The notes under the pieces: model-generated
The model's input: only the letters and a program-made list of their open reading frames with translations
Database searches by the model: none
Told to the model about the DNA's origin: nothing
Assembly: GCF_010681825.2 (NCBI RefSeq)
Contig: NZ_CP066776.1
Span: 1,984,001 to 2,048,000 of the forward strand
From: Sulfuriroseicoccus oceanibius
GTDB lineage: Bacteria; Verrucomicrobiota; Verrucomicrobiia; Verrucomicrobiales; SLCJ01
Direction of reading: 5' to 3'
DNA length: 64,000 nt
Shown: positions 11,883-56,005 of the stretch, one piece after another
How positions within the stretch are numbered: the stretch's first letter is position 1
How the letters are laid out: each line of letters starts with the position of its first letter
Program-made: the position numbers and the translations under genes

Positions 11883-12345
11883 AGTTTGCTAGTGTGCTCG
11901 TTTGCAGTTTTCAGTGGGGATGAGAACTGCGGTGGTGTTTTCGACGGCCGGCGGGTGGCCGGGTGAGCGCGACGGAATCGGTGGCTTGGCCGGTTGGGGG
12001 AAGTCGGGAAGTCGGGATAGGACGGATAGGACGGATAGGACGGATAGGACGGATAGGACGGATAGGACGGATAGGACGGATAGGACGGATAGGACGGATA
12101 GGACGGATAGGACGGATAGGACAGGCGGCGTGAGGGAGGATGTCGACAGGAATGTCGACCGACCAGCGACGGGTGGCTGTGGCGAGTGCCTCGAATTGGA
12201 GGCTATCTGTGACCATCTGCGAGCATCTGTGGCCTTGATGTGCAAGCGAATGCTCGCTGCGTTCGGGGGGGATCGAGTCGACGGGGACGTCGAGCCTCCA
12301 AGGGGACGTGATCCTCCAAACGGAGCGAAGGGCTGAGCGACTCAT
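11883..12345. repeat. Dispersed ~300-bp repeat, copy C, interrupted by a minisatellite
   Basis: It starts with the same TTTGCAGTTTTCAG motif as copy A. It then has CTTGGCCGGTTGG, the 9-bp array (listed separately), GATGTCGACAGGAATGTCGAC, ATCTGTGACCATCTGCGAGC and a GTCGACGGGGACGTCGAG hairpin near 12275. The whole gap between natB and the helicase gene is this material and it shows no credible gene. Confidence 0.75.
12016..12122. repeat. 9-bp minisatellite (GATAGGACG)n, about 12 copies
   Basis: An essentially perfect 9-bp array. Because 9 is a multiple of 3 it stays open in all frames and reads Asp-Arg-Thr or Val-Leu-Ser repeats. That explains the long open frames here, which have no other coding signs. 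Confidence 0.95.
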
Positions 12346-29626: not shown

Positions 29627-29935
29627 CAAGCGCGTTTTTGCGCCGAGGGAGTCCAATGCCTGCGTCATTTGTCTGACTGTGTTTCATTGAAATTAATAGC
29701 TTCTCACGTTTGAGAAGAAGCTTGTTTAATGGGGCTTCAAAAGCATTCCTAACGAGTCGTATGATTCTTCGTTAGAAAAAATGACTGTAACGAAAATGAT
29801 GAATTCGCAATTACTCAACGTCGCCACTGCGCTGGTTTGAGGCCGGAGTTTCGTTGATTCGCTAGCTCCTTTGCCGTTCAGGCTGAAAGCGTGAGGTGGT
29901 GGAATCCCCGAAACAACAACCCCTCGATAACAACA
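29627..29935. other. AT-richer leader before the giant surface protein gene
   Basis: No gene is seen. It has an inverted repeat CTTCTCACGTTTGAGAAG at 29700-29717 and AACGAGTCG...TTCGTT near 29750-29772, plus AT-rich stretches that could hold the promoter for the 8.9-kb gene downstream. The 45 bases before the chosen ATG form an in-frame extension without signal-peptide character. Confidence 0.5.
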
Positions 29936-32900
29936 ATGAGCGTTTTTAGAAGTGCGGTGCGTGGCATCGTATCAGCGTCGGTCATGGCATCTGCTTGCAG
30001 TGTCGGGACCTTGCACGCGAGCAATGACAATGACTGGTGGTTCATGGGCCCGGTCGGTGGCAAGTTCCAGGTTCAGGCTGGCCAGCCCTATGTGGTGGTG
30101 CGTGCTGTGGATGCAGGTAGTCCGGCGGAAGCCGCGGGACTGCAGGTGGGCGACTACATTATGGGCGCGTACGGGCGCAATTTCCTGACCACTGGAGGAT
30201 CGACGGCAGGTTACAAAGGAGCGCCACAAGGGTTGGCGGAAGCGATTGAGCGCGCTGAGGCGAGTGACGGCCAGATGGAGTTGACCGTGTTGCGTCCGGG
30301 CGTGGGGGCGGTGGATCTGACTGTGAGCCTGCCGGTAGCCGGTGCATTCGGTGCGGCCTACCCTCTGGGGAGCACCAAGTTTGATTCGATTTATCAAGAG
30401 GCTGCATCTGAGATCCACTCGCATGTGACTGGGTCCAGTGATGCCAACATGGGTTACATGACGGGCTTCTACGGGCTGGTGTTGATTGCCGATCCGAACT
30501 GGAACGATACCACTGGGGCCAAGCCGTACCGTCTGTCGGTGGACAAATTGAAGGACCGTTGCGTGACGCTGATCAACAACGCGATCCTCGTGCCGGCGGA
30601 AGAGACCAACATGGACGGCACGCCGAACGATGGTTCGGAGAACGATAGCGATCCTAACGACAACAACTATGTCGGTCCGGGATTGGAAAACTGGGACCTT
30701 TCGGTGTCGGCGATGTATCTGGCGGAGTACCGCAAAAAGACCGGTGATACATCGGTGGATGCTGCGGTGCAACGTGCGGCCGACGCGTTGGCCAACCGGA
30801 TTCAGACCTGGCAGCAACCTCCTTATGGTGGGAACAATGGTCCGACCAAGGTGGGATTGATGGGGCATGGTGGTGTGGTTGGGGATTACCCACACATCGG
30901 TTACTCGGGGATCAATATCATCAACGCGCATGCGATGGCTGCATTGGCCATGCTTGAGCAAGCTGGCGCAACGGTGGATGACACCAAGATGCAGGCCAGC
31001 TGGAATTGGGTGAAGGGGACTACCACGCTCAACAACGGTGCCGATGATGGAAACATCGGTTATGCTTGGCAGCAGGGTGGGTATGATTCGGGCGGGCGTA
31101 CGGCAGGGGTTGCGTATGCGATGTCGGTTTACGGCGGGCTCAACCAGTCTGACCAAGGAGTGCTGACCCGGATGAAGGATTATCTTTCGCGCCAGTGGCA
31201 GCGGATGCAGCACACCCACGCCTACACCGTGGGTGGTAACCAGTTCTATCAGTTTGTGTTGCCATATCTGCCTGACCGCGATCAGCGCTTCATCATGGAG
31301 AACCAGCGTATGTTCTACCATTTCCACCGCAAGGTGGATGGAACGCTGGGTTACTTCGGTGGGCGCGAGAACAACGGTGGTGACGGCTATGTGAATACCT
31401 ACCGGGTGGCTCTGACCAACGTGGGGATTGCACAGGCAGTCGCTAGTGGTGGGCTCACCACGATCGCACCGCTCGATAACACAAGAATCCACGCGGAGTT
31501 CCAATCGCCATTCCTGACCTGGCCGACACTTGATGCTCGCAAGGTGGAGCTCGACACGCAGTCGCAGGCCTTCACTGTGGATATTACCGACTACCAAGGG
31601 ACGTCATTGCAGCCTGCCGATTACACGGCGACTTGGACCCATGTTTCGGGACCGGGGACCGCGACGTTCACGTCGGCCAATACTCCGAGCACGACGGTGA
31701 ACTTCCCGCAGGACGGGACCTATCGCATCCAACTCGAAGTGGTGAAGGGGAGTTACACTCTGACCGAGCCGATCGATGTGGTTGTCGATACGTCGGTTGA
31801 TCCTATTGGCTATGTCTTGGGTAAGGCGCGTCAGCGGATCTATACCGGTATCTCCGGCTTGGCCGTGAGCGATCTCACAGGAAGTGCAAACTATCCTGAT
31901 TCACCTAACGCGACAGGAACATTGACGGCGCTCGATTCGTCGGGCATCGGCGACAGTCTGGGACAGCGGATCAGCGGCTATCTGGTGGCTCCATCATCGG
32001 GGGCGTACACATTCTACGTGGCGGCCGATGACTCGGCTGAGTTCCGTCTCAACTCCGCTGGAACCGATCCAGCCGGTGCTTCGACCATTTGCTCGGTGAA
32101 TAGCTGGGTTAGCCAGTACAACTGGACGGCCAACGCATCGCAGACAAGCTCGGCGGTGACATTGACCGAAGGGCAGATGTACTATTACGAAGTGCTGCAC
32201 AAAGAGGGTGGCGGAGGCGACCACGTGGCCGTGGCTTGGACCGGTCCAGGAATCGCGAGTCCTACTGTGATCTCCGGTGATGTGTTGGCAGTGGCTGATA
32301 CGGTGTCAATTGTTGCCCAGCCTGAGGCCCAGACCACAACCTTGGGCGGATCAGTGAGCTTTGACATCAGTGTCGAGGGGGATGGTCCGTTTATCTACGA
32401 ATGGATCTCAGGCTCCACCTCGTTTGGCGTGGGTTCTTCTTCGTCGTTGTCGCTTGAGAACGTTGGCGCAGGTCACGCAGGGGACTACTACTGCGTGGTG
32501 ACATATCCTGGTGGCTCGCTGACCTCAGCTACCACAACGCTGACCATTACCGATGCTGGAATTCTTGCTGGCGGCGGATTGTGGCGTGATCAGTTCGACG
32601 GCATCGGTGGTGGTGCGATTACCGATTTGACCGGTAACAGCAATTACCCTCGCTTTCCTAGCTCCGGTGGCGTGATCACCAATGCGGAAAGTGCCAGCGG
32701 CATTGCCGATTCGTACGGGGCCCGTTGGACGGGTTGGGTTCGTCCGGATGTAACCGGAACCTATTACTTCTACATCACTTCGGACGATGCTTCGCAGTTG
32801 TGGCTCTCGACCGATGATCAACCTGCGAACAAGGTGCAGATTGCGAGTGTCGGTGGCTACACCGGTGCGCGTTCGTGGTCCTCTGGTGGTCAGTCGGTTG

Positions 32901-35900
32901 CGATCAGCTTGGTGGCTGGTGAGCGGTACTATATTGAAGTGCTGCACAAGGAAGGTGGCGGCGGCGACCACTGCGCGGTCGCATGGCGCAAGCCGGGCGA
33001 TGCGGTGCCTGCCAATGGTTCGGCGCCTATCCCAAGTCAGTACCTCGAGTACTTCACTGGTGGTGTGCAGGGCTCGTCGGTGACGATGCCTCCTACTTTT
33101 GGAAGTACCTCGTATGCAATGAGCGTGGCGGAGAACTCTGGTGTGGGTGTTTCGGTGGGAACCGTGAGCGCTACTGATGCCGGTGGCAATACGCCGCTTA
33201 CGTATTCGATCACTGCAGGTAACACCGGCTCGATGTTTGCGATCGATTCCAGCACCGGTGAAATCACTACCGCAGGGGATCCTGATTATGAGTCGCTGGA
33301 CAGCTATTCGCTGACCGTGCGTGCGACGAATACACTGGGCGAAAGCGGCCAAGCCACCGTGAATGTTGCGGTGCTCAACCGTTTGGATGGCACTGGTAGC
33401 TGGGAAGTCGGTGTGGATGAAGGGACTCCGGTCGCTCTGAAATATGCGACCGGATTGGCTGGCAACACGACTGCCAGCGTGGATCTGTCCGCGATCAGTG
33501 GTGATGCCACTTATGAGTTCCTTGTTGATGCTGAAGATAACGGTCAGGCCGCACTGAATGTGTTGGCCGCGAATGGCTGGAGCCTTCGCTTTGAGCAGTG
33601 GAACAACACCGCTCGCCTCGGGATCACTCAGTCCGGCGTGGCCGACTGGCAATTTACCGCCGAGAGCGGGCAGTCGCTGGTTTCTCCATACGGGCGTCAG
33701 GTGCACATGGTTTACGTCGTGGATACCACTGCGGGAGAAACCCGTTTGTATGTCGATTCGGTGCTTGTCGGACGATTGAACCGCACGCCAAATCTGGCGA
33801 ATGCTGCGGCAACGCTGGGTGATACGGGCATGCGCAACGACGCGGAGCCGGGGATTCTCGGATTTGCCGCTTATAACAGCGCACTCGATGCTACAGAAAT
33901 TCAAGCCCACTATGATGATTGGCGCGGCGATGTGCCTAATGCGGCTCCGGTTGCTGACGACGCGACCTTCGCGCTCGATGAACAGCAAGTCGCCGGAACC
34001 GTGGTCGGCACAGTGACCGCCAGCGATACCAACGCGGGCGATGCGTTGACCTTTGCCATCACCTCGGGCGACCCTGCTGGTGACTTCGTGATCGATGCCG
34101 TTACCGGTGAGATCACGACTGCCGCGGAGTTGAACTACGACCTGGCAACCCAGTACGTGCTGGGTGTGACGGTGACTGATATCAACGGGCTCAGCGATAT
34201 CGCGACCGTGACGGTGAACGTCAACAACCTGCCTGGCGGGGTTTCCGACTGGGAACTTGCGGTGGATGCCGGAGCAACAGTGCTGCACAAGCGCACGGCT
34301 TCGGTTCCTGGCAACTCGACAGTGAATGTGGACCTCTCCGCAATCTCCGGTGACGCGACCTATGAGTTTGTCGTGGATTCGGTGAACTATGGTCAGGTCT
34401 GGGGTAATTTGTTGGCCGCCAATGGTTGGCAGTTGCGCAACGAACAGTGGAATAACACCAACGAGCTCGGTGCTACCTTGAGTGGCAACGCCGACTGGAG
34501 GCTGACGGCCGAGACCGGTCAGTCTGTGGCAACCCCATACGGACGCGTTGCACACATCACCTATGTGGTGGACACCACGGCCGGCGAGTTGCGCGCATAC
34601 GTCGATGGTGTGTTGGTTGGTCGATTGAGCCAGCAGCCTAACTTGAGCAATGCAGCTGCAGTGCTTGGATCCGCCAATGTGCGTAACGATAGCGAGCCGG
34701 GTATCCTGGTCTTTGCTGCTTACAACAGTGCCTTGGATGCTGCGGAAATCGCCGCTCACTCCGACGCTTGGTTTGGTAATGAGCCTGCCAACGCGGCTCC
34801 AACTGCGAATGATGGCTCGTTCTCGGTTGCTGAAAACCAGCCTGCTGGTACTGCGGTGGGAACGGTGAGTGCCACCGACCCGAATGCGGGCGATGTGCTT
34901 AGCTATGCGATCACCGCAGGTAACGCGGGGGGCGAATTCGCCATCGATGCCGCCACCGGAGCGATCACGACTACCGCAGCATTGGATTACGAGGCTGCGA
35001 GTGTCTACGCATTGACCGTGACTGTGACCGATAGCGGTGCGCTTAGCGACACGGCTGCGATCACCGTGACCGTGACCGATGAGAACGAAGCGCCGGTGGC
35101 AACTGGTGGATCGAGCTCGTTGCCGGAGAACGTGATTGCTGGATCGGCTGTCGCGACCGTCGCCGTGAGCGACGTGGATGCTGGCGACAGCGCGAGCTTC
35201 GCCATCACCAGTGGCAACACCGGTGGTGCGTTCGCAGTCGATGCAGCTGGTAACATCACCACAGCGACAGCTCTCGATTACGAAACCACCAGCAGCTACG
35301 CATTGGTCGTGACCGTCACCGATAACGGTGGCCTGACCGATACGGCAGCGCTGAACGTCAATGTGACCAACGTGAACGAGGCACCGGTTGCGACCGATGG
35401 CTCGGGTAGCCTGGCGGAAGACGCAACCGTGGGATCGGCCGTGGCGACCGTCGCGGTGAGCGATCCGGATGCCGGCGACAGCGCAAGCTTCGCCATCACC
35501 AGTGGTAACACCGGCGGTGCATTTGCCATCGATACGGCTGGTAATATCACCACCGCAACAGCGCTCGATTACGAAACCACCAGCAGCTACGCGTTGGTAG
35601 TGACCGTCACCGACGGTGGTGGCCTGACCGACACGGCGGCTGTGAACGTCAGCGTGACCAACGTCAACGAAGCGCCAGTGGCCAGCGATGGCTCGGGCAG
35701 CGTGGCGGAAGACGCGACTGTGGGAACCGCAGTGGCTACCGTCGCGGTGAGTGATCCGGATGCGGGCGACAGCGCAAGCTTCGCCATCACCAGCGGTAAC
35801 ACCGGCGGTGCATTCGCAATCGATGCTGTAACCGGTGCCATCACCACGGCTGCTGCATTGGACTACGAAACCACCAACAGCTACACGCTCGGTGTGAGCG

Positions 35901-38830
35901 TGACCGATGGCGGTGGATTGACCGACACAGCAACAGTCAATGTGTCAGTGACCAACGCCAATGAGTCGCCGGTCTTCGCCAGTGATCCAATCGTGGCGGC
36001 GGACGGAACAGCGTTGGTTGCTTATACCGGCACCCTGGCTGGCAGCGCGAGCGACCCGGATGCCGGCGACACGCTGAGCTTCAGCAAGGTCTCGGGGCCA
36101 GCCTGGCTCTCGGTTGCTACTGATGGTGCGCTCTCGGGAACACCGGCTGTCAGTGATGCATGGCTCAACTCGTTCACCGTCGAGGTGAGCGATGGCAACG
36201 GCGGCACGGCTCAGGCAACCCTTCAGATCACCGTGGCGGCTACCAGCGTGGTGCTCTTCGACGACTTCGAAGGATATGACGTGGAGAACCCATCGGACTT
36301 CTCGGTTGGCGGCACGCCGACAGGAAACTGGACGGCAAGCAACACGGCGTCGAACGCGACCCGTATCTTCGACACCCCGAACTACGGCGGCACCCGCTTG
36401 TGGATCAGCAACGTCGATGGCAGCAGCATCACCAGCTCTGGTGCGACGGTTGCGGAAAACACACACTACAGCTTGTCTGCGGTGCTGTTGACCGAGACGG
36501 CAACAGCCGGGCGCACGCTGAATGCAACCTACGACGTGCTCGTCGGTCAGGATGCGGCATCGGCCACCAGTATCATTGGCGGACCACAGGCTGTGGTGAC
36601 CAATGGAGATGACTGGCAGACGCCGGATTCGAAAGATGACCATGTGTTCACCCAGAGCTTCCAGACCGGAGCGCTCAACCCGGGAGACCAGTTGTTCGTG
36701 CGCTTCACTCGCGTGGGCACTGCGGTGACTGGTGGTTGGTTTGGTGTGGACGACGTGATGGTCGACACCGTGGGCGCCAACAGCGCACCAGTAGCAAATG
36801 ACGCCACCTTCGCTGTGGCTGAAAACGAAGCGGCTGGCGCGGCTGTGGGAACCGTGACCGCAACTGATGCGGATACGGCCGATACGCTCAGCTATGCCAT
36901 CACCGCGGGTAACGACGGTGGTGAATTCGCCATCGACAGTGCGACCGGTGAGATCACCACGACCGCTGTGTTCGATTACGAAACCGCTGCCAGTTATGCA
37001 CTGACCGTGACGGTCACCGATGGCAGTGCCGCAACCGACACCGCGGCTGTGACCGTCAACGTGACCGACGTCAATGAAGCGCCGGTTGCTGAAGATAACA
37101 GCGGCAGCCTGGCGGAAGATGCGACAGTTGGTGCTGCGGTGGCAACCGTGGCGGCCAGCGACGTCGATGCCGGATCCGTGCTCAGCTACGCGATCACCGC
37201 GGGTAACGAGTCGGGTGCATTTGCAATCGATGCCGGAACTGGTGCGATCACCACGGCTGCGGCTCTCGATTTCGAGACCACTCCAAGCTACGCGTTGACC
37301 GTCACCGTGACGGATAACGGAACACCAGCACTCAGCGACACCGCTGCGGTGGCTGTGACCGTGACCAACGTCAACGAGGCACCGGTTGCCAACGATGGCA
37401 GCGGCAGCGTTGATGAAAACGTCAGCGTCGGCACCGTGGTGGCAACCGCTACCTCATCGGATGTCGATGCCGGTGACACGCTCAGCTATGCGATTACCGC
37501 TGGTAACACCGGTGGTGCGTTCGCAATCGACAGCAACAGCGGTGTGATTACCACGGCCGGAGCGATCGATTACGAAGCGGTGAGCAGTTATGCGCTGACC
37601 GTGACGGTGACAGATGCCGGTGGCTTGAGCGACACCGCTGTGGTGAACGTGAGCGTGAACGACATCAACGAAGTGACCGCGCCAGTGGTTGCGACGGGAG
37701 TTGCCAGCGCGGTGACCCAGACATCGGCCGATGTGGCCTACACCATCAGTGATGATGGAGGCGACGCACCGGCAGTGACTGTCTACTACGGTGAGACCGA
37801 CGGCGGCCAAGTGGCTGGCAACTGGAGCAACAGCATCGCCCAGGGCAACCAGGCGGCAGGAAGCTACAACGCCGCGCTTACTGGGTTGACCGCAGGCACC
37901 ACCTACTACTTCACCGTCCAGGCCAGCAACAGTGCCGGCACCGTGTGGGGCAGCAGTGGATCATTCACTACTGAAGCAGATACCTCGCCGAAGTTGGTGC
38001 GCACCACCGTCAGTGCGGTGAGCAGCAGCACGTGGACGACCGTGGATCTCGGTCAGAGCTACAACTCGGCAGTGATCGTGGCGACTCCGATCTATCCAAA
38101 CATTAGCACGCCACCAGTGGTGACCCGCATCCGCAATGTTAGCGGCAGCAGCTTCGATCTCAAGATCGACCGCGCCGACGGGCTGACCGGTGAGGTGACC
38201 ATTGATGTGTCGGTGATCGCTGTGGAGGAAGGGGTCTACACCCAGGCCACCGACGGCGTGACCATGGAAGCGGTGAAGTACACCTCGACCGTGACTGCGG
38301 AGAACAACAGCTGGGTGGCGGAAGCCCGCGCGTACCAGAACAGCTACACCAATCCGGTGGTCGTTGGTCAGGTGATGAGCGCGAACGACGCCAACTGGTC
38401 CGTGTTCTGGAGCATGGGGAGCTCGCGTCAGAACCCAGTGGATGCCTCGAACTTGAACGTAGGCAAGCACGTGGGTGAAGATCCGAATGCGACCCGCGCT
38501 GATGAGACCATTGGTTACATCGTGATCGAGTCCGGCAACGGAACGATCAACGGAGTGGCCTACGAGGCCGGGTTGGGTGCGGATAACGTGCGCGGCTTCG
38601 ATAACAGTTCGGCTCCATACACCTATGACCTGAGCGGAACGCTGGGCAGCGCGAGTGCCGCCGCCCTGAGTATCTCGGGTATGGACGGTGGTGACGGTGC
38701 ATGGGCGGTGCTCTCGGGTGCGAATCCGATCACGCCGACAGTGCTTGGCCTGCACGCCCTCGAAGATCAGATGGGCGACAGCGATCAGAGGCACACCACT
38801 ACGCAAGTAGGATACCTCGTGTTCGAGTAA
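29936..38830 (+). CDS. Giant secreted/surface protein: DUF6288 + PA14, LamG, cadherin and FN3 domains
   Basis: About 2,964 residues from the ATG that opens a signal sequence (MSVFRSAVRGIVSASVMASA, cleavage near LHA/SND). A PDZ-like stretch (DAGSPAEAAGLQVGDYI) leads into a DUF6288-type alpha-rich region (about 30,400-31,500). Next are PA14 (31,805-32,300), an Ig-like domain (to 32,545), a second PA14 (32,570-33,060), a cadherin repeat, LamG-like, cadherin, LamG-like, then four cadherin repeats (34,790-35,960). A CADG-like domain (to 36,240), a beta-sandwich domain, three cadherins (36,780-37,675), an FN3 domain and a 285-residue C-terminal domain (KLVRTTVSAVSSSTW) complete it. Cadherin repeats end in the DxNEAPVA calcium motif. 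It is probably a Ca-stabilised adhesin or carbohydrate-binding surface protein. No PEP-CTERM, LPXTG or other sorting signal is visible at the C-terminus. Confidence 0.88.
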   Translation: MSVFRSAVRGIVSASVMASACSVGTLHASNDNDWWFMGPVGGKFQVQAGQPYVVVRAVDAGSPAEAAGLQVGDYIMGAYGRNFLTTGGSTAGYKGAPQGLAEAIERAEASDGQMELTVLRPGVGAVDLTVSLPVAGAFGAAYPLGSTKFDSIYQEAASEIHSHVTGSSDANMGYMTGFYGLVLIADPNWNDTTGAKPYRLSVDKLKDRCVTLINNAILVPAEETNMDGTPNDGSENDSDPNDNNYVGPGLENWDLSVSAMYLAEYRKKTGDTSVDAAVQRAADALANRIQTWQQPPYGGNNGPTKVGLMGHGGVVGDYPHIGYSGINIINAHAMAALAMLEQAGATVDDTKMQASWNWVKGTTTLNNGADDGNIGYAWQQGGYDSGGRTAGVAYAMSVYGGLNQSDQGVLTRMKDYLSRQWQRMQHTHAYTVGGNQFYQFVLPYLPDRDQRFIMENQRMFYHFHRKVDGTLGYFGGRENNGGDGYVNTYRVALTNVGIAQAVASGGLTTIAPLDNTRIHAEFQSPFLTWPTLDARKVELDTQSQAFTVDITDYQGTSLQPADYTATWTHVSGPGTATFTSANTPSTTVNFPQDGTYRIQLEVVKGSYTLTEPIDVVVDTSVDPIGYVLGKARQRIYTGISGLAVSDLTGSANYPDSPNATGTLTALDSSGIGDSLGQRISGYLVAPSSGAYTFYVAADDSAEFRLNSAGTDPAGASTICSVNSWVSQYNWTANASQTSSAVTLTEGQMYYYEVLHKEGGGGDHVAVAWTGPGIASPTVISGDVLAVADTVSIVAQPEAQTTTLGGSVSFDISVEGDGPFIYEWISGSTSFGVGSSSSLSLENVGAGHAGDYYCVVTYPGGSLTSATTTLTITDAGILAGGGLWRDQFDGIGGGAITDLTGNSNYPRFPSSGGVITNAESASGIADSYGARWTGWVRPDVTGTYYFYITSDDASQLWLSTDDQPANKVQIASVGGYTGARSWSSGGQSVAISLVAGERYYIEVLHKEGGGGDHCAVAWRKPGDAVPANGSAPIPSQYLEYFTGGVQGSSVTMPPTFGSTSYAMSVAENSGVGVSVGTVSATDAGGNTPLTYSITAGNTGSMFAIDSSTGEITTAGDPDYESLDSYSLTVRATNTLGESGQATVNVAVLNRLDGTGSWEVGVDEGTPVALKYATGLAGNTTASVDLSAISGDATYEFLVDAEDNGQAALNVLAANGWSLRFEQWNNTARLGITQSGVADWQFTAESGQSLVSPYGRQVHMVYVVDTTAGETRLYVDSVLVGRLNRTPNLANAAATLGDTGMRNDAEPGILGFAAYNSALDATEIQAHYDDWRGDVPNAAPVADDATFALDEQQVAGTVVGTVTASDTNAGDALTFAITSGDPAGDFVIDAVTGEITTAAELNYDLATQYVLGVTVTDINGLSDIATVTVNVNNLPGGVSDWELAVDAGATVLHKRTASVPGNSTVNVDLSAISGDATYEFVVDSVNYGQVWGNLLAANGWQLRNEQWNNTNELGATLSGNADWRLTAETGQSVATPYGRVAHITYVVDTTAGELRAYVDGVLVGRLSQQPNLSNAAAVLGSANVRNDSEPGILVFAAYNSALDAAEIAAHSDAWFGNEPANAAPTANDGSFSVAENQPAGTAVGTVSATDPNAGDVLSYAITAGNAGGEFAIDAATGAITTTAALDYEAASVYALTVTVTDSGALSDTAAITVTVTDENEAPVATGGSSSLPENVIAGSAVATVAVSDVDAGDSASFAITSGNTGGAFAVDAAGNITTATALDYETTSSYALVVTVTDNGGLTDTAALNVNVTNVNEAPVATDGSGSLAEDATVGSAVATVAVSDPDAGDSASFAITSGNTGGAFAIDTAGNITTATALDYETTSSYALVVTVTDGGGLTDTAAVNVSVTNVNEAPVASDGSGSVAEDATVGTAVATVAVSDPDAGDSASFAITSGNTGGAFAIDAVTGAITTAAALDYETTNSYTLGVSVTDGGGLTDTATVNVSVTNANESPVFASDPIVAADGTALVAYTGTLAGSASDPDAGDTLSFSKVSGPAWLSVATDGALSGTPAVSDAWLNSFTVEVSDGNGGTAQATLQITVAATSVVLFDDFEGYDVENPSDFSVGGTPTGNWTASNTASNATRIFDTPNYGGTRLWISNVDGSSITSSGATVAENTHYSLSAVLLTETATAGRTLNATYDVLVGQDAASATSIIGGPQAVVTNGDDWQTPDSKDDHVFTQSFQTGALNPGDQLFVRFTRVGTAVTGGWFGVDDVMVDTVGANSAPVANDATFAVAENEAAGAAVGTVTATDADTADTLSYAITAGNDGGEFAIDSATGEITTTAVFDYETAASYALTVTVTDGSAATDTAAVTVNVTDVNEAPVAEDNSGSLAEDATVGAAVATVAASDVDAGSVLSYAITAGNESGAFAIDAGTGAITTAAALDFETTPSYALTVTVTDNGTPALSDTAAVAVTVTNVNEAPVANDGSGSVDENVSVGTVVATATSSDVDAGDTLSYAITAGNTGGAFAIDSNSGVITTAGAIDYEAVSSYALTVTVTDAGGLSDTAVVNVSVNDINEVTAPVVATGVASAVTQTSADVAYTISDDGGDAPAVTVYYGETDGGQVAGNWSNSIAQGNQAAGSYNAALTGLTAGTTYYFTVQASNSAGTVWGSSGSFTTEADTSPKLVRTTVSAVSSSTWTTVDLGQSYNSAVIVATPIYPNISTPPVVTRIRNVSGSSFDLKIDRADGLTGEVTIDVSVIAVEEGVYTQATDGVTMEAVKYTSTVTAENNSWVAEARAYQNSYTNPVVVGQVMSANDANWSVFWSMGSSRQNPVDASNLNVGKHVGEDPNATRADETIGYIVIESGNGTINGVAYEAGLGADNVRGFDNSSAPYTYDLSGTLGSASAAALSISGMDGGDGAWAVLSGANPITPTVLGLHALEDQMGDSDQRHTTTQVGYLVFE
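35098..35970 (+). repeat. Three near-identical 291-bp cadherin units inside the giant gene
   Basis: Units begin at 35098, 35389 and 35680 (exact 291-bp steps, 97 codons) and share long identical blocks such as GACAGCGC and TTCGCCATCACCAG. The similarity at DNA level implies recent duplication or conversion within the array, unlike the more diverged repeats on either side. Confidence 0.85.
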
Positions 38831-39445: not shown

Positions 39446-39640
39446 GATGAGCTGCCGGGTGCGCAGAGTATCGCGGATGGTTAGAAATGATGCGTGTCCC
39501 GGTTTTACAAGCAGATGAGCTGTCGGGTGTGCAGGGTGTCGCAGATGGTTAGAAATGATGCATGTCCCGGTTTTACAAGCAGATGAGCTGTCGGGTGTGC
39601 AGGGTGTTGCAGATGGTTAGAAATTATGCGTGTCTCGGTT
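39446..39640. repeat. 68-bp tandem repeat, about 2.9 copies
   Basis: TTAGAAATGATG/TTAGAAATTATG recurs at 39481, 39549 and 39617 (exact 68-bp steps), with GATGAGCTGTCGGGTGTGCAG and GTCCCGGTTTTA in each unit. A degenerate partial unit leads in. It borders the AT-richer island that starts near 39,660. Confidence 0.88.
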
Positions 39641-39766
39641 TTAAACGTGCTGCATAAAGCCTGCGGGATGCCCGATCTTCATTATCTCTGGCTCAAAATG
39701 CGTCAGATCTCACTGCAGAGATGACGGAGATCCAAAACATTTTGGTTGAAAACGCGGCTCCCCGGA

Positions 39767-40594
39767 CTACTCAACTATTTTCACTCGTTCCATCCTCTTG
39801 ATTGCAAATACTCGATCAGCCCGCCTGAGGTAGCAATACCCTTCCACACACAGAGAGTACCCCACCTGCTTTAGGCCAGTCGGCTTAATCGAGCGCTTAC
39901 TCCTCGTCCCATCGCGTTTGGAGTAACTAAAAGCAATTACTAAGCTCTCAGATACAGCGTATGTAATGAGCTCCAACCGATCAGAAAAAGCCGGCCTATT
40001 TACAGGGGGAATGTATTTACCACCAGTTGACACATCTCTCCCACCGTGTGCCTGACTATGGCACCTCACACATAAATATTCTAGGTTGTCGAGTCGATGA
40101 CTCCCCCCACGAGACACGGGAACAGTGTGATGAACATGTTTCTCAACGTTCACCTTCATGCACTTTTGGCAAAAATTTCCTAACTGATCGACCAATAAAC
40201 GTTTCCTATCCTCCCAATCAGGAGGAGTCTCAGGCCAATAATCATATAAATACTCTATAAGGTCCCGGAAAGACTGAGCTTCACGGTTAAGGACCTTTAT
40301 CTGCCAAGGTATATCATTTAATCTGCCTCTATAGAAACTCTCATCTAGCCCCCCCCAACCCCAAAGAACCTTCAGCTTATATTTAAAGGTGCTTATCTCT
40401 GCAATCTTTGCTTCTGCTTCACGCTTCTCCGCACTTAGTGCTGCAATCTGCCTCGACGCTTCAGATAGAGACCACAACAAACGATTGAAGCATTCAATAT
40501 GATATTGGACTCCATTTGTCAGGACTTTGCTACCACAACTGGAGCACCCGTCCCTACAAATTACACATATTTGATCACCCAACAGGTCAGTCAT
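39767..40594 (-). CDS. Zinc-ribbon/coiled-coil/HNH nuclease with C-terminal WYL-like domain
   Basis: 275 residues. The N-terminus is a LIM-like zinc site (Cys10, 13, 17, 20, His32, Cys35). A charged helix follows (about 42-75). The HNH core has CQKC at 142-145, HVHHTVPVSRGG with His155/156, Asn170, and LCVRCHSQAH with two more zinc cysteines. Residues about 205-275 fit a WYL-like ligand-sensing fold (SLVIAFSYSKRDGT ... IKPTGL ... RVFAIKRMERV). HNH domains cut or nick DNA or RNA; WYL domains act as sensors and are common in phage-defence regulators. The gene is AT-richer than its surroundings and lies in a repeat-bordered island. Defence is a reasonable guess, not shown. Confidence 0.78.
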   Translation of the reverse strand: MTDLLGDQICVICRDGCSSCGSKVLTNGVQYHIECFNRLLWSLSEASRQIAALSAEKREAEAKIAEISTFKYKLKVLWGWGGLDESFYRGRLNDIPWQIKVLNREAQSFRDLIEYLYDYWPETPPDWEDRKRLLVDQLGNFCQKCMKVNVEKHVHHTVPVSRGGSHRLDNLEYLCVRCHSQAHGGRDVSTGGKYIPPVNRPAFSDRLELITYAVSESLVIAFSYSKRDGTRSKRSIKPTGLKQVGYSLCVEGYCYLRRADRVFAIKRMERVKIVE

Positions 40595-55003: not shown

Positions 55004-55056
55004 GGATTGGGGAGATTTTTCTGTTTTTGTGTAATGTGGTTTGTTAGTTGGTTTTT

Positions 55057-55482
55057 ATGACTGGAGTTTTGAAGGGGAGTCGGTCGGCGGGTGGCGATCC
55101 TGAAACGTATGCGATTATTGGTGCGGCAATGGCGGTGCACAGTGAGCTGGGGAGGGGCTTTCTGGAACAGGTGTACCAGCAGGCATTGGAGCAAGAGTTC
55201 TTGGCTCGTGGGATTCCGTTTTTAAGGGAGGTTGAGATTCCCATTAACTACCGAGGAAGGCCTCTTGGGGTGAGTTACAGAGCGGACTTCTTGTGCTACG
55301 AATCCGTGATCGTTGAGACCAAGGCTCTGGTAGAGCTTCAGGGGGTGCATGATTCGCAGGTGATCAATTACCTCAAAGCGACCGGACTGAACCGGGGACT
55401 GCTGCTGAACTTCGGGACACCGGCACTGCAGTACCGAAGGCTAGTCTATGAACTGAAGGAGCCACCTGCGCCACAAAAATGA
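55057..55482 (+). CDS. GxxExxY protein (PD-(D/E)XK nuclease-like fold)
   Basis: 141 residues from the ATG at 55057. It contains GRGFLEQVYQQAL, the signature motif of the GxxExxY family, then VSYRADFLC and VIVETKA, which supply the Asp and Glu-x-Lys of a PD-(D/E)XK-like core, and QVINYLKATG and LLLNFGTP at the end. Family function is unknown. Members occur in many copies and variable sites across Bacteroidetes, Cyanobacteria and Planctomycetes. Here the gene is flanked by copies of the same TCCGCAGATG/ATCTGCGGA repeat, with no other gene partner. Confidence 0.85.
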   Translation: MTGVLKGSRSAGGDPETYAIIGAAMAVHSELGRGFLEQVYQQALEQEFLARGIPFLREVEIPINYRGRPLGVSYRADFLCYESVIVETKALVELQGVHDSQVINYLKATGLNRGLLLNFGTPALQYRRLVYELKEPPAPQK

Positions 55483-55498: not shown

Positions 55499-56005
55499 TT
55501 GGGTTGGTCCGCAGACGGGCGAGACGGATCAGGATGCAGAGTAGAGTCCGCAGATGAGTAGGATGGGAAAGATATAGGATGTCAGTCCTTGATGTTAGGA
55601 AGGGGGGGTATTGAATCCAAATCCCTACCATCTTGGCTATCTGCGGACAGTAACTAAAATCTTGCATATCGGGAACATCTGCGGACCCGACAGTTGGGTT
55701 GGTCCGCAGATGAGCAGAATGTGAAAGATGTGGGATGTTGGCCCTTGATGTTTGGGGGGGGGGCATTGAATCCAAATCCCTAGCATCTTGCTTATCTGCG
55801 GATAGTAACGAAAATCTTGCTCATCGTGAACATCTGCGGACCCGACACTTGGGTTGGTCCGCAGATGAGCAGGATGGAGAAGATAGGGGAAGTCCTTTTC
55901 AGGTCTGTGGGGAGCAAGCCCTTGGGACCATAATCCTCATCATCCTGTCTATCTGCGGAGAGTTATGGAAATCCTTGCTCATCCTGAGCATCTGCGGACT
56001 CCTCT
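55499..56005. repeat. 155-bp tandem repeat, three copies
   Basis: CCGCAGATGAG starts at 55548, 55704 and 55859 (steps of 156 and 155). Each unit carries the motif once forward (TCCGCAGATG) and twice reversed (ATCTGCGGA), with ATTGAATCCAAATCCCTA between, so units can fold into large hairpins. The second unit has a G10 run at 55754-55763. The array runs up to ftsK; no gene is present. Confidence 0.88.

What the first reader, a model, noticed from the sequence alone, without database searches (positions are those of the whole stretch)
39767..40594. Zinc-ribbon/HNH/WYL fusion protein in an AT-richer island
A LIM-like zinc site, HNH nuclease core and WYL-like sensor in one 275-residue protein is an unusual domain set. 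WYL domains often sense nucleotides or nucleic-acid ligands in phage-defence loci. It lies in an island bordered by tandem repeats and lacks recognised partners, so it could be a one-gene, ligand-gated nuclease.
Basis: partly seen in the sequence, partly recalled or inferred. Interest (0 to 1): 0.6.

Follow-up and report, generated by a model that had tools for sequence, protein, structure and literature searches.

The report
Mobile zinc-HNH-WYL nuclease, probable phage defence
A horizontally acquired bacterial gene encodes a DNA-cutting (HNH) domain fused to a sensor domain of a kind that elsewhere binds single-stranded DNA; its two full-length relatives ride on a phage and on a mobile island carrying restriction genes, so it is probably a small stand-alone defence or weapon nuclease, of a type mentioned only once before and apparently never tested.

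Summary
The 275-residue ORF at 40594-39767 (-) has an N-terminal CxxC/HxxC zinc site, a predicted coiled coil, an HNH core (Pfam 3.4e-11) and a C-terminal WYL domain (Pfam 2.5e-9). A confident model of residues 110-275 (pLDDT 83; WYL part about 95) matches the WYL folds of BrxR, CapW, PafBC and DriD. 'LIM-like' is right only loosely, because just one zinc site is conserved.

Two full-length homologues (32-34% identity) keep the order of domains, the HNH residues and four WYL arginines that contact ssDNA in Pif1 and PafBC. One lies in a 12.3-kb integrase island at a tRNA-Thr gene of a Victivallis MAG, beside a BglII-like endonuclease and a restriction helicase. The other is an antisense, AT-rich gene beside the tape-measure gene of a phage. 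The congener lacks the gene.

In the window it is a solitary acquired gene beside proBA; the 'island' is about 2.5 kb and its tandem repeats belong to a repeat dispersed through this genome. Best reading: a dimeric HNH nuclease whose WYL domain recognises ssDNA, carried as anti-phage or inter-element cargo. WYL-HNH fusions were noted in 2014. Nuclease activity, ligand and defence are untested.

The parts
39767..40594 (-). Complete gene: 275-aa zinc site / coil / HNH / WYL protein
   Evidence: ORF and translation; full-length homologues; GC 0.455 and GC3 0.446 against about 0.60/0.70 around it
40490..40567 (-). N-terminal zinc-binding site, residues 10-35 (C10-x2-C13 ... H32-x2-C35)
   Evidence: the four ligands are invariant in three homologues; no Pfam hit; inferred zinc site
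40259..40486 (-). Predicted helical/coiled-coil region, residues about 37-112, likely oligomerisation
   Evidence: helices 33-80, 95-103, 109-118 in the low-confidence model; inference
40214..40246 (-). Conserved YDYWPETPPDW motif directly before the HNH core (residues 117-127)
   Evidence: YD...PPDW invariant in three homologues; related motif before HNH in L006 and L058, shorter YP-DW form in haloarchaeal HNH proteins
40046..40171 (-). HNH nuclease core, residues 142-183 (C142/C145/C175/C178 zinc, H155-H156, N170, H179, H183)
   Evidence: PF01844 3.4e-11; residues invariant; strand-strand-helix in the model
39776..39976 (-). WYL domain, residues 207-273, with basic groove R234, R257, R261, R267
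   Evidence: PF13280 2.5e-9; pLDDT about 95 and Foldseek matches to BrxR, CapW, PafBC, DriD; arginine mapping
39446..39643 (.). Tandem array (68 bp x 2.9) downstream of the gene: a dispersed intergenic repeat of this genome, not specific to the gene

Best explanation
A horizontally moving, probably single-gene nuclease carried as cargo by phages and integrative elements. Proposed mechanism: the N-terminal zinc site and coiled coil hold the protein as a dimer (inferred). The C-terminal WYL domain binds single-stranded DNA, or a similar polyanion, in its arginine groove (inferred from the conserved arginines and from Pif1, PafBC and DriD). The neighbouring HNH core then cuts or nicks DNA (inferred from an intact active site). 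ssDNA exposed during phage replication or DNA damage would thus place or switch on the nuclease, giving defence against phages or competing elements. Shown here: gene, domain order, conserved catalytic and groove residues, WYL fold, mobile-element setting of both homologues, AT-rich composition in all three settings. Not shown: activity, ligand, defence.
For: HNH and WYL above the Pfam cut-offs in all three homologues. HNH and zinc residues invariant at 32-34% identity. Model of the HNH-WYL half at pLDDT 83, with best matches to BrxR, CapW (including the ssDNA-bound entry), PafBC and the DriD-ssDNA complex. Closest WYL by sequence in the PDB is the Pif1 helicase WYL (1.6e-6). The five arginines named for ssDNA contact in DdPif1 (R464, R491, R495, R498, R501; a model, PMC9964779) map to R234, R257, R261, A264 and R267, so four of five are kept; PafB arginines with the matching spacing are needed for ssDNA binding (PMC11804915). 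Relatives of the HNH module carry zinc ribbons in place of WYL, for example Zn_ribbon_Top1 at 8.6e-14 in L006. Context: Victivallis copy in a 12.26-kb island with perfect 41-bp repeats at tRNA-Thr, an integrase, a BglII-like REase and an Mrr/ResIII helicase; phage copy antisense beside the tape-measure gene, 0.39 GC against about 0.63. Sporadic occurrence and no copy in the congener.
Against: No defence gene lies near the window copy. Only two other full-length members were found, so the context rests on two loci. The position of PafB R211 / DdPif1 R498 is Ala in this protein (Lys in the Victivallis copy). Cargo on phages and islands can also be selfish or serve the element rather than the host. 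The full-length model was poor (pLDDT 45), so the N-terminal half and any dimer are unproven.
Confidence: 0.5

Rival explanations
1. Selfish free-standing HNH endonuclease (homing-like): the gene spreads by cutting alleles that lack it, and the WYL domain only helps to bind DNA.
For: Solitary AT-rich gene in three unrelated settings, one of them within a phage structural region; HNH endonuclease families of phages match its HNH.
Against: The phage copy is antisense to the structural genes and the window copy is beside proBA and repeats, with no sign of insertion in a conserved coding target; a WYL sensor fold is not typical of homing enzymes (own knowledge); the Victivallis copy sits among restriction cargo.
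Confidence: 0.2
2. Small-molecule-gated effector nuclease: the WYL domain senses a nucleotide signal and switches on the HNH.
For: WYL was first proposed to bind nucleotides or nucleic-acid fragments and to regulate defence (PMC4012209); PADLOC WYL profiles of CRISPR-associated signalling match (2.1e-10).
Against: No nucleotide cyclase or CRISPR gene was identified beside any of the three copies; structural and sequence neighbours of the WYL domain bind ssDNA.
Confidence: 0.15
3. Accessory DNA-repair or recombination nuclease of mobile elements or hosts, with ssDNA binding guiding structure-specific cutting; no role in conflict.
For: WYL occurs in Pif1 helicases; HNH nickase-like fold match (4h9d, weak); the Victivallis copy is next to element replication-type genes.
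Against: Sporadic and AT-rich distribution; absent from almost all relatives; no conserved repair partner.
Confidence: 0.13

Closest known systems
WYL-HNH fusion proteins listed by Makarova et al. 2014 (PMC4012209)
   Same: WYL domain fused to an HNH endonuclease in one polypeptide, proposed there as a ligand sensor coupled to an enzyme of defence
   Different: Only one clause in the paper, and its supplementary list was not available here. This protein adds a zinc site, coil and YDYWxxxPPDW motif, and its relatives are shown on a phage and an integrative island
WYL sensors that bind ssDNA: PafBC, DriD, CapW, and the Pif1 helicase WYL
   Same: WYL fold and four of five groove arginines
   Different: No HTH or helicase; the output domain is an HNH nuclease; one groove arginine is Ala
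Stand-alone HNH restriction enzymes such as McrA-type Type IV enzymes (6ghc) and haloarchaeal YP-DW HNH proteins
   Same: HNH core with the same Cys/HH/N/H pattern
   Different: WYL replaces a modified-base reader; no modification dependence known
L006/L058-type proteins of Verrucomicrobiota (membrane segment, DYW-PPxW motif, HNH, C-terminal zinc ribbons)
   Same: Same HNH module with the DYW...YPPxW motif; L006 also has N-terminal zinc sites
   Different: Topoisomerase-type or other zinc ribbons in place of WYL; membrane segments
IscB (NCBIfam NF040563)
   Same: HNH stretch similarity (4.6e-10)
   Different: 39 bits against a cut-off of 175; no RuvC halves; not a member

Membership tests
HNH endonuclease (PF01844) | Profile match above the curated cut-off | tested here: met
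   43.5 bits against 21.4
HNH endonuclease (PF01844) | Catalytic His/Asn/His and structural Cys4 intact | tested here: met
   H155-H156, N170, H179, C142/C145/C175/C178 invariant in three homologues
HNH endonuclease (PF01844) | Metal-dependent DNA cleavage | not testable with these tools
   needs protein
WYL domain (PF13280) | Profile match above the curated cut-off | tested here: met
   37.5 bits against 21.8; also in both homologues
WYL domain (PF13280) | Sm-like barrel fold | tested here: met
   pLDDT about 95 for this part; Foldseek probability 1.00 to BrxR, CapW, PafBC, DriD
ssDNA-binding WYL (PafBC/DriD/Pif1 type) | Groove arginines conserved | tested here: inconclusive
   4 of 5 kept, A264 replaces the fifth
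ssDNA-binding WYL (PafBC/DriD/Pif1 type) | ssDNA binding | not testable with these tools
   needs EMSA
LIM domain | Two adjacent zinc sites (eight ligands) | tested here: not met
   only C10, C13, H32, C35 conserved; no Pfam LIM hit
RNA-guided IscB | Full IscB profile with RuvC parts | tested here: not met
   39.1 bits against 175, HNH stretch only
WYL transcription regulator of defence islands (BrxR/CapW) | N-terminal winged HTH with WYL | tested here: not met
   no HTH found; HNH instead
Known anti-phage system in PADLOC 2.0 | Full-length match to a defence protein model | tested here: not met
   only partial HNH or WYL stretches matched
Anti-phage defence gene | Mobile-element or defence-gene context | tested here: inconclusive
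   2 of 2 homologues on mobile elements, 1 of 2 beside restriction genes; the window copy itself has no such context
Anti-phage defence gene | Protects a host against phage | not testable with these tools
   needs plating assays

The most novel reading that the evidence does not exclude
A family of one-protein immune nucleases in which a WYL domain directly senses ssDNA from phage replication and switches on a covalently attached HNH nuclease, traded between phages, integrative islands and bacterial chromosomes. In the published parallels read here, WYL sensing of ssDNA acts through transcription (PafBC, DriD) or helicase activity (Pif1).
Probability: 0.25. Interest if true: 0.72.

Novelty: new variant of a known kind. 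Interest (0 to 1): 0.42.

Why it matters
WYL domains are known as ssDNA or nucleotide sensors that control transcription of DNA-damage and phage-defence genes. A WYL domain fused directly to an intact HNH nuclease would be a minimal sensor-effector device that can be tested with one gene and a few point mutants. The family defined here (zinc site, coil, YDYWxxxPPDW, HNH, WYL) on a phage, an integrative island and a chromosome gives concrete material for that test. No paper naming such a fusion 'HNH-WYL' was found in the library searched.

Tried and rejected
Full-length structure prediction with two sequences failed (pLDDT 45) and was not used beyond helix hints; it was replaced by a model of residues 110-275 from eight sequences. 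Early viral scans with one or two sequences, and a DNA pattern for YDYWxxxPPDW, found nothing; a WYL-only alignment then found the phage homologue. The last viral scan found the same contig only. An HNH-wide viral search gave 25 HNH proteins, none matching the WYL part. tblastn against phage and plasmid records gave HNH-only or WYL-only matches; no record covered 80% of the query. The haloarchaeal plasmid HNH proteins examined show no WYL-like C-terminus. The idea that the gene sits in an integrated element here was tested: no shared 13-mers between the two sides of the gene and no integrase within about 180 kb. The idea that the flanking repeats are part of the system was rejected: they occur at dozens of unrelated places. 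An IscB relation was rejected. The search beyond Verrucomicrobiota was limited: the one genome-contig scan used narrow patterns, and whole-genome searches could only be centred in this phylum, so 'rare' applies to the Verrucomicrobiota genomes drawn (at least 800) and not to all bacteria.

Full report
Observation. The ORF at 40594-39767 on the minus strand encodes 275 residues. Pfam finds HNH (3.4e-11) and WYL (2.5e-9), both above curated cut-offs. Nothing is recognised in the first 140 residues, but a CxxC...HxxC site and a helical stretch are visible. The gene is 0.455 GC with GC3 0.446, against about 0.60 and 0.70 around it. There is one copy in the genome, and the genome has one other WYL gene, an ordinary HTH-WYL regulator.

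Homologues. In Verrucomicrobiota genomes (several overlapping draws, at least 800 genomes) only one other genome has the full protein: a MAG named Victivallis vadensis, 34% identity, E 2.8e-37. A third copy is in viral contig IMGVR_UViG_3300042691_052989, 32% identity. In all three, C10, C13, H32 and C35 of the zinc site, the YD...PPDW motif, the four Cys and H155, H156, N170, H179, H183 of the HNH, and R234, R257, R261, R267 of the WYL domain are invariant. Such conservation over two thirds sequence divergence argues that the zinc site, the nuclease and the groove are in use.

Structure. Residues 110-275, folded with eight sequences, gave pLDDT 83 overall and about 95 for the WYL part. Against the PDB the best matches are BrxR, CapW, PafBC, ssDNA-bound CapW and the DriD-ssDNA complex; the best HNH match is the Gme HNH nicking enzyme at E 0.085, which is weak alone but agrees with Pfam. 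Among predicted viral proteins both WYL and HNH proteins match, but none is a fusion by name.

Ligand. By sequence the nearest solved entry with a WYL domain is bacterial Pif1 (1.6e-6). PMC9964779 names five arginines for ssDNA contact in its model of DdPif1; aligned here, four are kept and the fifth is Ala264 (Lys in the Victivallis copy). PMC11804915 shows that arginines of the same spacing are required for ssDNA binding by PafB. Relatives of the HNH module have topoisomerase-type or other zinc ribbons where this protein has WYL. Together this favours nucleic-acid recognition over a small-molecule signal, without proving it.

Context. The Victivallis copy is in a 12.26-kb island (L010 4199-16457) bounded by perfect 41-bp repeats, one in a tRNA-Thr gene, with a tyrosine integrase at one end, repeated AAAAGCAATCAA motifs near both ends, an HTH protein, replication-type proteins, a BglII-like endonuclease and a 1525-aa Mrr/ResIII helicase with eleven tandem repeat units. 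The phage copy is antisense beside the tape-measure gene, with portal and S49 protease genes in the same contig, and has 0.39 GC where its neighbours have 0.62-0.64. The Victivallis gene is also AT-richer than its island (0.352 against 0.426). The window copy stands alone between a 2979-aa repeat protein, a small exported protein and proBA. The congener G001 keeps proBA but has another gene upstream and no copy of this gene. The DNA downstream of the gene is a mosaic of repeats dispersed through the genome.

Interpretation. The safest statement is: a horizontally mobile, probably dimeric HNH nuclease with a WYL sensor of the ssDNA-binding type. Defence is the most likely role, from the restriction neighbours in one case, the phage-cargo position in another, and the general association of WYL with defence (PMC4012209), but a homing-like or repair role is open. 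The fusion as such was listed in 2014, so this is a new variant rather than a new kind.

Limits. Three family members only; the search outside Verrucomicrobiota was shallow; the N-terminal half was not modelled well; all function is inferred.

Noticed in passing
L010:4199-16457: 12.26-kb integrative island in a Victivallis MAG at tRNA-Thr, with perfect 41-bp att repeats, arm-type AAAAGCAATCAA repeats near both ends, integrase, replication genes and restriction cargo.
   Followed up: yes
L010:4638-9215: 1525-aa Mrr_cat_2/ResIII helicase with eleven tandem 71-aa repeats (INT_rpt matches); unusual long repeat tail on a restriction helicase.
   Followed up: partly
L057:8564-9514: PEP-CTERM protein with FGE-sulfatase fold encoded inside a phage structural module between portal and S49 protease genes; possible lysogenic-conversion gene.
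   Followed up: partly
L006:145-1839 and L058:952-1977: Proteins combining membrane segments, the DYWxxYPPxW-HNH module and C-terminal zinc ribbons (Zn_ribbon_Top1 in L006): a wider HNH family with exchangeable C-terminal modules.
   Followed up: partly
L013:145-1779 and L014: WYL domain fused to ankyrin-like repeats in a 544-aa protein of two genomes of the Victivallis class.
   Followed up: no
window 12015-12122: Twelve perfect copies of a 9-bp unit GGATAGGAC, with an ORF reading DRT repeats.
   Followed up: no
window 55051-55482 and 55546-55999: PDDEXK_3 (GxxExxY-type) protein next to a 155-bp tandem repeat array.
   Followed up: no
window 29891-38830: 2979-aa exported protein with cadherin-like repeats and a 291-bp internal tandem repeat.
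   Followed up: no
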